The notes under the pieces: generated by a model | Database searches by the model: none | Told to the model about the DNA's origin: nothing | Seen by the model: the letters and a program-made list of their open reading frames with translations, nothing else | Assembly (NCBI GenBank): GCA_030624945.1 | Contig: JAUXJB010000002.1 | Location: 1 to 22,002 of the forward strand | Length of the DNA stretch: 22,002 bases | Direction: 5' to 3' | Source: Deltaproteobacteria bacterium | GTDB taxonomy: Bacteria > Myxococcota_A > UBA9160 > SZUA-336 | Shown here: one piece after another, positions 18,646-20,163 of the stretch | Layout: every line of letters begins with the position of its first letter | Numbering within the stretch: position 1 is the stretch's first letter | Program-made: the position numbers and the translations under genes

Positions 18646-19215
18646 CTACTCGTCGGAGAACGTGTCCTCGTCGGAATCTTCGTCCGAGCCTTCGCCCTCG
18701 GCCCCGTCGGATTCCGCCGCTTCGAGCTCCGGTGTCTCGACCTCGTCGGGCTCGGGGATGCCGGCGGAGACCACCTTGACGGCGAGCTCGGCGATCACCT
18801 CCCGGTGGAGTCGCACGGACACGGTGTGGTCTCCCACCTGCTTGATGGCCTCCCCGAGCTCGATCTTGCGACGGTCGATCTGGAAGCCCGCCTCGGCGAG
18901 GCGGCCCGCGATATCGGCGTTGGTCACGGATCCGAACAGCCTGCCCTCGGAGCTCGCCTGCATCTCGAAGGCGAGGTCGACCGTGGCCAGGCCGCGAGCC
19001 ACCTCCTCCTGGACGGACATCTCCTTGCGCTGCTTCTCCGAGACCATGCGGCGCTGGTGCTCGATCTGCTTGACGCGCCCCGGCGTCGCCAGCATCGCCT
19101 TGCCCTGCGGGAGCAGGAAATTGCGACCGAAGCCGGCGCGCACCTTCACCACGTCACCGGCCTCGCCCAGCTTCGGGATGTCCTCGGTGAGGATGACCTG
19201 CATGGATCCCGCCAT
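18646..19215 (-). CDS. rplI: 50S ribosomal protein L9 with acidic C-terminal tail
   Basis: A two-domain ribosomal protein at the base of the L1 stalk. The N-terminal 23S-binding domain is MQVILTEDIPKLGEAGDVVKVRAGFGRNFL (5-34), followed by the long connecting helix and the C-terminal domain (about 80-150). Ordinary L9 is about 148 residues. This one continues for 37 residues (153-189), of which 18 are Asp or Glu. Met5 (ATG 19201-19203) aligns with the usual L9 N-terminus and may be the true start instead of 19215. Gene order rpsF-rpsR-rplI-dnaB is conserved in many bacteria. The spacer to rpsR is 9 nt. Confidence 0.95.
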   Translation of the reverse strand: MAGSMQVILTEDIPKLGEAGDVVKVRAGFGRNFLLPQGKAMLATPGRVKQIEHQRRMVSEKQRKEMSVQEEVARGLATVDLAFEMQASSEGRLFGSVTNADIAGRLAEAGFQIDRRKIELGEAIKQVGDHTVSVRLHREVIAELAVKVVSAGIPEPDEVETPELEAAESDGAEGEGSDEDSDEDTFSDE

Positions 19216-19224
19216 TCCCGCTCG

Positions 19225-19500
19225 CTATTGATGCGCCGTGGTGAAGGGGATCAGCGAGAGGTGGCGCGCTCGCTTGATCTCCACGGTGAGCCTGCGCTGG
19301 TGCTTGGCGCAGTTTCCGCTGATCCGCCGAGGGATGATCTTGCACCGCTCGGTCAGGAAAATCCGTAGCGTCTTCGAGTCCTTGTAATCCAGCTCCAGGG
19401 TGGCGTCCGCGCAGAAGCGGCACATCTTGTTGCGGCTGAACATGCGCCGTCCACCGCGACGCCTCTTTCGCGTGGGCCTCTTTGCAATGATCTCGGGCAC
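19225..19500 (-). CDS. rpsR: 30S ribosomal protein S18 (zinc-binding form)
   Basis: A 91-residue S18, partner of S6 on the platform of the small subunit. It has a basic N-terminus ([13 protein letters not shown]) and the core [23 protein letters not shown]. Cys27/Cys30 (MCRFC) and Cys64/His67 (GNCAKH) form a complete CxxC...CxxH zinc site. This marks it as the 'C+' form that most E. coli-type S18 proteins have lost. The GTG at 19498-19500 is supported by AGGAG a few nt upstream. The gap to rpsF is 9 nt. Confidence 0.96.
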
Positions 19501-19509
19501 GCTTCGCTC

Positions 19510-20163
19510 CTACTTCTCGTCCTCGTCGACCTCGAGCTTCTCGTCCTCAGCGACCGCGAGCTTCTCGCCCTGGCTAACCTCGAGCTTCTCGTCCTCGCTG
19601 ACCGCGGGCTTCTCGTCCTCGCCGACCGCGGGCCCCTTGTCCTCGCCGACCGCGAGCTCCTTGCCCTCGCTGACCCCGGGCCTCTCGTCCTCGCTGACCG
19701 CGAGCTCGGGCGCCCCGCCGTCCTCTTTCTCCAGCCCGGCCTGGCGCTCGGCCTCCATCCTGGCCCGTTCCTGCTCACGCTCCGCCTCGAGGCGCGCGCG
19801 CTCCTCCTGACGCCGGGCCAGCTCTGCTGCCTGCTCCGCGGCCTCGCTGATCCGAGCCTCCACGTCCTTCACGCTGTCGTCCACCTGGACGCTGAGGAAG
19901 CGCAGCACGTCGGGGTCGAGCCGAAGTCCGCGCTCGAGCTCGCTGATCTCGGAGCCCTCGCCCAGAAAGTTCAGCTGGAAGTAGTGACCCTTCTGGAACT
20001 TGCGGATCTCGTAGGCGAGCTTGCGTTTGCCCCAGTCGTCGCGAAGCAAGACCCGCGCACTACCCGAGCCCTCTATGAACTCATCTGCGCGAGAGTGGAT
20101 CTCTTGCTCGCGTTCGGGTGTCGCGTCCGGCTGAATGACGTAGATGAGCTCGTATTCGCGCAC
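19510..20163 (-). CDS. rpsF: 30S ribosomal protein S6 with long repetitive C-terminal extension
   Basis: Residues 1-96 are a normal S6 ferredoxin-like domain (MREYELIYVIQPDATPE, WGKRKLAYEIRKFQKGHYFQLNF, LRLDPDVLRFLSVQVD). The remaining 120 residues are extra. Residues 101-145 form a highly charged, probably helical or coiled-coil segment rich in Ala, Glu and Arg. Residues 153-216 are eight consecutive octapeptides of the pattern [KE][LP]xV[SG]ED[EK]. E. coli S6 is about 131-135 residues, so this protein is roughly 80 longer. The GTG at 20161-20163 has GGGAGG at 20175-20180, a 10-nt spacer. It is the first gene of the operon through efp. The tail should be solvent-exposed, because the S6 C-terminus is at the subunit surface. 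Confidence 0.95.
   Translation of the reverse strand: MREYELIYVIQPDATPEREQEIHSRADEFIEGSGSARVLLRDDWGKRKLAYEIRKFQKGHYFQLNFLGEGSEISELERGLRLDPDVLRFLSVQVDDSVKDVEARISEAAEQAAELARRQEERARLEAEREQERARMEAERQAGLEKEDGGAPELAVSEDERPGVSEGKELAVGEDKGPAVGEDEKPAVSEDEKLEVSQGEKLAVAEDEKLEVDEDEK
19516..19707 (-). repeat. Eight 24-bp tandem repeats inside rpsF
   Basis: Eight contiguous 24-bp units with no indels encode octapeptides ELAVSEDE, RPGVSEGK, ELAVGEDK, GPAVGEDE, KPAVSEDE, KLEVSQGE, KLAVAEDE and KLEVDEDE. The valine at position 4 is invariant, and an acidic residue occurs at positions 6-8 of nearly every unit. The DNA units are diverged yet strictly in phase, so they are old enough to have accumulated changes while the reading frame and pattern were kept. 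One Lys and the stop codon follow. Confidence 0.95.

What the first reader, a model, noticed from the sequence alone, without database searches (positions are those of the whole stretch)
19516..19707. Ribosomal protein S6 ends in eight phased octapeptide repeats
Directly visible: after the S6 fold and a charged helix, residues 153-216 are eight uninterrupted 8-residue units [KE][LP]xV[SG]ED[EK], encoded by eight 24-bp DNA units without indels. Acidic S6 C-termini are known (E. coli RimK adds glutamates to the S6 C-terminus), but a genetically encoded repetitive tail of this kind is unusual. The units have diverged in sequence yet keep the invariant Val and phase, which suggests selection. The tail could be a flexible surface arm, a binding array or a genetically fixed substitute for RimK polyglutamylation.
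Basis: partly seen in the sequence, partly recalled or inferred. Interest (0 to 1): 0.75.

Follow-up and report, generated by a model that had tools for sequence, protein, structure and literature searches.

The report
Repeat-grown acidic tail on ribosomal S6
An uncultured Myxococcota-type bacterium has a normal ribosomal protein S6 whose long, probably floppy, acidic tail has recently been lengthened by copying one 8-residue unit, a local variation on a tail that its examined relatives also carry.

Summary
In detail: rpsF (19510-20163, minus strand, 217 aa) ends in eight in-phase 24-bp/8-aa units (19516-19707) plus Lys. The reading needs correction. (1) The tail is not peculiar to this genome: 75 of 75 complete S6 genes of the same class have 59-192 residues beyond the fold, with a negative distal part; 21 of 75 (window included) show tandem periodicity. 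(2) The units are young duplicates: same-residue codons differ in 7 of 119 comparisons against 47.7 expected; pN/pS is 2.3. An invariant column is expected by chance (0.91), and the Val is lost in one unit each of two sisters. Unit number (6-9) and sequence change while the S6 core differs at 0-4 of 97 positions. (3) A RimK substitute is not supported (tail length with/without RimK-family protein, p=0.17). AlphaFold2: S6 fold, 46-residue charged helix, low-confidence tail. Most likely the octads are near-neutral lengthening of a class-wide acidic brush on the 30S platform; the brush role is inferred. S6's partner S18 has a basic N-terminal extension in the class, but tree-corrected covariation is absent. 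New variant of a known kind.

The parts
19510..20163 (-). rpsF, ribosomal protein bS6, 217 aa, GTG start
   Evidence: TIGR00166 79.8 bits over cut-off 42.9; PF01250
19870..20163 (-). S6 fold, residues 1-98
   Evidence: Pfam match residues 3-92; AlphaFold2 strands and helices of S6, pLDDT about 90 apart from a loop near residues 41-60; top Foldseek hits are S6 crystal structures and ribosome entries
19726..19863 (-). charged (E/R/A) helix, residues 101-146
   Evidence: AlphaFold2 helix 101-146, block pLDDT 86 to 76, 58 at its end; helix 101-147 in sister P0005
19516..19707 (-). eight 24-bp / 8-aa tandem units, residues 153-216, net charge -17; predicted unstructured
   Evidence: AlphaFold2 block pLDDT 44-54
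19507..19511 (-). AGGAG Shine-Dalgarno-like sequence before rpsR, overlapping the rpsF stop codon
   Evidence: sequence directly
19225..19500 (-). rpsR, ribosomal protein bS18 (binding partner of S6)
   Evidence: TIGR00165 101.4 bits
19441..19500 (-). basic N-terminal extension of S18, 20 residues, net +8
   Evidence: 19-20 residues and +7 to +8 in the 5 family loci examined, window included
18646..19215 (-). rplI, ribosomal protein bL9 with a 39-residue acidic tail (net -18)
   Evidence: TIGR00158

Best explanation
rpsF encodes an ordinary bS6 that, like its relatives in this class, carries a C-terminal arm: a charged helix of about 46 residues followed by an acidic, probably disordered tail. 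Selection acts on the arm's gross properties (reading frame, length range, negative charge), not on a fixed sequence. In this lineage the acidic part has been built by repeated in-frame duplication (slippage or unequal exchange) of one 24-bp unit, each adding eight residues and about two negative charges. Shown: repeat anatomy, youth of the units, turnover in sisters, class-wide acidic tail. Predicted only: helix and disorder. Inferred: that the arm extends from the 30S platform near S18 and the S1/mRNA-exit site and works as an electrostatic brush, limiting non-specific contacts or tuning S1, S18 or mRNA access, with the octads themselves being nearly interchangeable filler.
For: Class-wide tails: 75 of 75 complete class members, 59-192 residues beyond the fold, distal net charge -5 to -46, median -14; the last 64 residues of 18 other window ORFs that I took as genes run from -7 to +8, apart from L9 at -18. 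Tandem periodicity at p<0.01 against composition shuffles in 21 of 75 tails (window included; about 0.75 expected), best periods 4-23; by eye no common unit among the printed tails. Units are recent copies: codon mismatch 7 of 119 against 47.7 expected; pN/pS 2.3. Sisters P0001-P0006 have 8, 8, 9, 6, 8 and 7 units with core differences of 1, 1, 1, 2, 1 and 4 of 97; P0005/P0006 arrays are largely re-homogenised to KLEVGEAT. Two AlphaFold2 models agree: S6 fold, helix, then low confidence from about residue 149. [quoted passage not shown] Mycoplasma pneumoniae S6 has a long C-terminal extension and ribosomal-protein extensions are common in bacteria (PMC9534751).
Against: No experiment bears on this organism; the brush function is inferred. 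Octad length and the LxV-acid pattern are kept through re-homogenisation (Val in 52 of 54 units of 7 proteins), which could mean unit-level selection, though duplication alone explains it. pN/pS above 1 could also mean diversifying selection; the difference between codon positions is not significant when columns are counted (Fisher p=0.21). Low AlphaFold2 confidence is not proof of disorder, and a single chain cannot show a multimer. 3 of 97 relatives gave no S6 match, two of them over 90% complete (G013, G020), and 14 of 96 cut loci could not be judged.
Confidence: 0.68

Rival explanations
1. Multivalent docking array: each octad (LxV followed by acidic residues) is a short linear motif that binds one partner copy, so the array concentrates an RNA-binding factor or S1 at the platform.
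For: Octad length and the LxV-acid pattern survive re-homogenisation in P0005/P0006; Val at position 4 in 52 of 54 units of 7 proteins.
Against: Among the 120 listed of 853 S6 hits only P0001-P0006 have octad tails, and the tail-only search added no other S6 (it missed P0005 and P0006, so its reach is limited). Other class members have other repeats or none, so no conserved partner is implied; Val retention is expected from recent copying.
Confidence: 0.12
2. Genetically fixed substitute for RimK polyglutamylation of S6.
For: Acidic tail; no RimK-family match above cut-off in the own genome (best listed 70.1 bits with TIGR00768, cut-off 143.4; 44.7 bits with NF007764, cut-off 331), and the one NF007764 hit lies in a glutathione synthetase.
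Against: Genome 73% complete, so absence is weak; TIGR00768 passes its cut-off in only 7 of the 14 control genomes. 17 of 75 class members have both a RimK-family protein above cut-off and a long tail; tail length medians 94 and 99, p=0.17. The tail is mixed E/D/K/L/V/P, not polyglutamate.
Confidence: 0.08
3. Partner tail: the acidic S6 tail shields or pre-organises the basic N-terminal extension of S18, its heterodimer partner encoded by the next gene.
For: All 58 class loci in which the S6 end and S18 could be read have a basic S18 extension (net +7 to +16), median 72 residues; raw correlation of tail and extension length rho 0.73 and of charges -0.63 over 101 loci.
Against: With phylogenetically independent contrasts the correlation vanishes (length r=-0.04, p=0.72; charge r=-0.16, p=0.12); within the class rho is 0.09 for length and 0.05 for charge, and among the 43 other loci 0.20 and -0.28 (p=0.19 and 0.065). 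In the window's family the S18 extension stays at 19-20 residues while S6 tails run 62-119 (5 loci).
Confidence: 0.1
4. Triple-stranded beta-helix of the phage T4 gp5 / VgrG kind, built from octapeptide repeats.
For: Pfam PF22178 matches the octads: window 23.4 bits, tail alone 25.8, sister P0003 32.3 against a cut-off of 30.9; P0001, P0002, P0004, P0005 and P0006 score 20-25.
Against: Window and five of six sisters are below cut-off. The two above-cut-off matches among 19 relatives (G012, G002) are near neutral and richer in G, N and T (0.21-0.25 against 0.09), E+D 0.14-0.19 against 0.38 here, Chou-Fasman beta 0.95-0.97 against 0.79; both models show no strands in the tail.
Confidence: 0.02

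Closest known systems
Mycoplasma pneumoniae ribosomal protein S6 C-terminal extension (PMC9534751, passages seen)
   Same: Long encoded C-terminal extension of S6 with helical and loop parts; the paper reports such extensions throughout bacteria
   Different: Here the distal part is an acidic array of young 8-residue tandem copies; no solved structure
RimK-polyglutamylated RpsF of Pseudomonas / E. coli, including encoded rpsF-10Glu constructs (PMC7343187, PMC11957791, passages seen)
   Same: Acidic extension at the same C-terminus of the same protein
   Different: Here genetically encoded, 119 residues beyond the fold, mixed composition; post-translational glutamates unknown; no RimK above cut-off in the held genome
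Acidic S6 tails with other tandem repeats in the same class (this work, e.g. L026, L057, L063, L072)
   Same: Same place, same acidic, low-complexity character
   Different: Unit sequence unlike the octads here; L057 also has an 8-residue period but a different unit; independent origins inferred
T4 gp5 / VgrG octapeptide beta-helix (PF22178; VgrG and octapeptide rule recalled)
   Same: Eight-residue period with Val
   Different: Acidic, poor in Gly/Asn/Thr, below cut-off in the window, no predicted strands

Membership tests
bS6 (TIGR00166 / PF01250) | family profile above curated cut-off | tested here: met
   79.8 bits against 42.9; 82.2 against 27
bS6 (TIGR00166 / PF01250) | S6 fold, and rpsR and rplI as neighbours | tested here: met
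   AlphaFold2 and Foldseek; rpsR and rplI adjacent
Ribosomal-protein extensions (criterion of PMC9534751: more than 20 residues beyond the E. coli protein) | extension longer than 20 residues beyond the E. coli end | tested here: met
   217 aa against S6 chains of 131-135 aa that I recall as E. coli; 119 residues follow the fold
RimK-modified S6 system | rimK in the genome | tested here: inconclusive
   none above cut-off, but genome 73% complete
RimK-modified S6 system | post-translational C-terminal polyglutamate | not testable with these tools
   needs mass spectrometry
Gp5_trimer_C (PF22178) | score above curated cut-off | tested here: not met
   window 23.4 against 30.9; of six sisters only P0003 passes, 32.3
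Gp5_trimer_C (PF22178) | beta strands / trimer | tested here: inconclusive
   no strands in monomer models; trimer not modelled

The most novel reading that the evidence does not exclude
This class of Myxococcota-type bacteria has a remodelled 30S platform: an acidic, repeat-growing tail on S6 facing a basic, outside the window's family often low-complexity, N-terminal extension of up to about 135 residues on its partner S18, together forming a tunable charged gate at the S1/mRNA-exit site; the octad array is one lineage's fast-evolving setting of that gate.
Probability: 0.15. Interest if true: 0.65.

Novelty: new variant of a known kind. Interest (0 to 1): 0.3.

Why it matters
It shows a core ribosomal protein with a near-constant fold whose tail length and sequence turn over by tandem duplication between very close relatives. 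Such tails are a natural series for asking what ribosomal-protein extensions do: relatives differ in 8-residue steps while the fold is constant. It also points to an acidic-S6 / basic-S18 pair of extensions across a class, which I did not see described in the listings of the searches I made (open-licence PMC papers only). It does not reveal a new system.

Tried and rejected
S6-S18 covariation: strong raw correlation but gone after independent contrasts; kept only as a rival. T4 gp5-like beta-helix: looked attractive because of the octad period and one above-cut-off sister, rejected on composition, score and models. Solved-structure sequence search with the tail: 0 of 177635 distinct sequences at E up to 10. 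S6 tandem repeats or Myxococcota S6/S18 extensions in print: nothing relevant in the listings (15 papers; 8 of 170 shown). PMC11764897 (passages) speaks of eukaryotic RPS6, a different protein. P0121 (120 aa, no S6 domain), the only non-S6 hit of the tail search, has similar KPxVSxDE units; taken as convergence. Shine-Dalgarno count: my S18 start rule prefers starts with a Shine-Dalgarno-like core, so '42 of 42' is partly circular.

Rows dropped: of 96 loci cut for S6, 11 run off a contig and 3 are broken or partial (L094-L096), leaving 82, of which 75 are class members and 7 from other classes. Of 176 loci given to the S6/S18 script, 104 had S18 and an S6 with its stop; 3 duplicates were removed, leaving 101. 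L095, with only the later part of S6, is among the 58 class loci. S18 starts were chosen by rule; a few (for example L078) look unsure. In one search only the best 120 of 853 hits were listed, so remoter octad tails could be missed.

Full report
What is there. rpsF lies at 19510-20163 on the minus strand and encodes a 217-residue S6 (TIGR00166; PF01250). Residues 153-216 are eight contiguous octapeptides encoded by eight 24-bp units at 19516-19707 without indels, followed by Lys-stop; Tandem Repeats Finder gives score 227 and 8.1 copies. The neighbours downstream are rpsR (S18), rplI (L9) and dnaB. The window is the whole of contig C49 of a 73% complete genome of 1.78 Mb in 301 contigs. The nearest named records by S6 are metagenome bins titled Myxococcales, Proteobacteria, Deltaproteobacteria and Myxococcota, so I call the organism Myxococcota-type by inference; its own name is not given. 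'Class' below means the tool's kinship 'same class' or nearer (G000-G089).

How old the repeat is. Between units, pN is 0.224 and pS 0.099 over 28 pairs. Among unit pairs with the same residue, codons differ in 7 of 119 cells; drawing codons from 13 window ORFs gives 47.7 on average and never as few as 7 in 5000 draws (lowest 18). So the units are copies of one another, not convergent, and they are young. Nine of 16 first/second codon positions vary and 2 of 8 third positions (Fisher p=0.21, not significant); with nine variable, an invariant residue column is expected with probability 0.91, so the 'invariant Val' carries little weight. In-phase 24-bp steps are what duplication within a gene must give if it is to keep the frame.

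Close relatives. A search of 5.77 billion proteins listed the best 120 of 853 hits; six of them have octad tails (P0001-P0006, 80-97% identical). Parsed back from the C-terminus, allowing Val or Ala at position 4, the seven proteins hold 8, 8, 8, 9, 6, 8 and 7 units (window first), with core differences of 0, 1, 1, 1, 2, 1 and 4 of 97. In P0005/P0006 most units have become KLEVGEAT, the sign of array-wide turnover. Position 4 is Val in 52 of 54 units, the exceptions being the first unit of P0005 and of P0006. P0001's cluster may include the window's own protein, so it is not independent. A search with residues 148-217 alone gave five proteins, P0001-P0004 and P0121 without an S6 domain; it missed P0005 and P0006.

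Wider relatives. S6 was found in 94 of 97 genomes (none in G001, G013, G020). I cut out 96 loci; 82 hold a complete S6, 75 of them in the class. All 75 have 59-192 residues after the fold (median 96), and all 75 have a negative distal part (after the first 45 tail residues), -5 to -46, median -14. Twenty-one of 75 tails, the window's included, show tandem periodicity (p<0.01; 200 shuffles; periods 4-24 scanned), with best periods of 4 to 23 residues. The seven complete members of other classes have tails of 24-90 residues. So a long acidic tail is a class character and repeat growth in it is frequent; the window's octads are one instance.

Structure. AlphaFold2 on a 72-sequence alignment gives the S6 fold, a helix at 101-146 and block pLDDT 44-54 over the repeats. 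A very regular array, P0005, gives the same with pLDDT 33-46 over the tail. The 50 listed Foldseek hits are S6 crystal structures and ribosome or small-subunit entries. The match of the octads to PF22178 I read as the shared 8-residue Val period; the two above-cut-off matches among 19 relatives are of different composition.

RimK. TIGR00768 passes its cut-off in 21 of 97 genomes, not in the own one (in 7 of 14 control genomes); NF007764 finds only a 44.7-bit hit in the own genome, in an ORF that Pfam calls glutathione synthetase. Tail lengths of 17 RimK-family-positive and 58 negative class members do not differ (Mann-Whitney p=0.17). Absence in the own genome is weak because the genome is incomplete.

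S18. In the 58 class loci where the S6 end and S18 could be read, S18 has an N-terminal extension of net +7 to +16 before the conserved core; in the 53 outside the window's family it is 31-135 residues long (median 74), in the 5 of the family 19-20; 35 of 58 contain a K/R-A/S-R/K-K/R-K/R-A/S-R/K-K/R motif. In 42 of 58 the chosen S18 start overlaps the S6 stop as ATGA, and in these 42 a Shine-Dalgarno-like core lies within the last S6 codons; since my start rule prefers such cores, the 42 of 42 is partly circular. In 9 of the 12 printed examples it falls on Glu-Glu codons, so the very end of the acidic tail may in part be kept as the ribosome-binding site of rpsR. In the window the AGGAG overlaps the S6 stop instead. 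Length and charge of S6 tail and S18 extension correlate across 101 loci (rho 0.73 and -0.63), but independent contrasts give -0.04 and -0.16, not significant: it is a difference between clades, not continuing coevolution.

Interpretation. Passages of PMC11957791 say that S6 binds S18 and that mobile tails of both interact with S1; passages of PMC10123108 place S1 between head and platform beside uS2, bS18 and bS21; passages of PMC9976891 place bS6, bS18 and bS21 around the 16S 3' tail in Flavobacterium. Passages of PMC7343187 report Pseudomonas rpsF extended by 10 or 4 encoded glutamates. An acidic arm there could plausibly act as an electrostatic brush. That is inference. PMC9534751 (passages) reports that 11 Mycoplasma pneumoniae ribosomal proteins, S6 among them, have extensions, that extensions are common in bacteria and that their functions remain largely elusive. 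Hence: known kind, new variant, moderate-to-low interest.

Noticed in passing
class loci, e.g. L013, L038, L047; window 19441-19500: S18 carries a basic N-terminal extension in all 58 class loci read, up to 135 residues outside the window's family and, by eye, often with GDR/GGDR-like tandem units, ending in a K/R-rich stretch before the core.
   Followed up: partly
class loci: The chosen S18 start overlaps the S6 stop (ATGA) in 42 of 58 class loci, with a Shine-Dalgarno-like core inside the last S6 codons (partly circular, because starts were chosen with such a core).
   Followed up: partly
window 18646-18765: L9 ends in a 39-residue acidic tail (net -18); acidic L9 tails of 16-39 residues occur in the 7 family loci read, while many other class members have about 2 residues and some others 27-51 acidic ones.
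   Followed up: no
P0121 (120 aa): A protein without an S6 domain but with similar KPxVSxDE octads, suggesting that such acidic octad arrays arise elsewhere.
   Followed up: no
P0024, P0028: More distant S6 tails contain an ELAVSEDE or ELAVSGDE stretch, in P0028 within a 16-residue-like repeat; a possible older seed of the octad, or chance.
   Followed up: no
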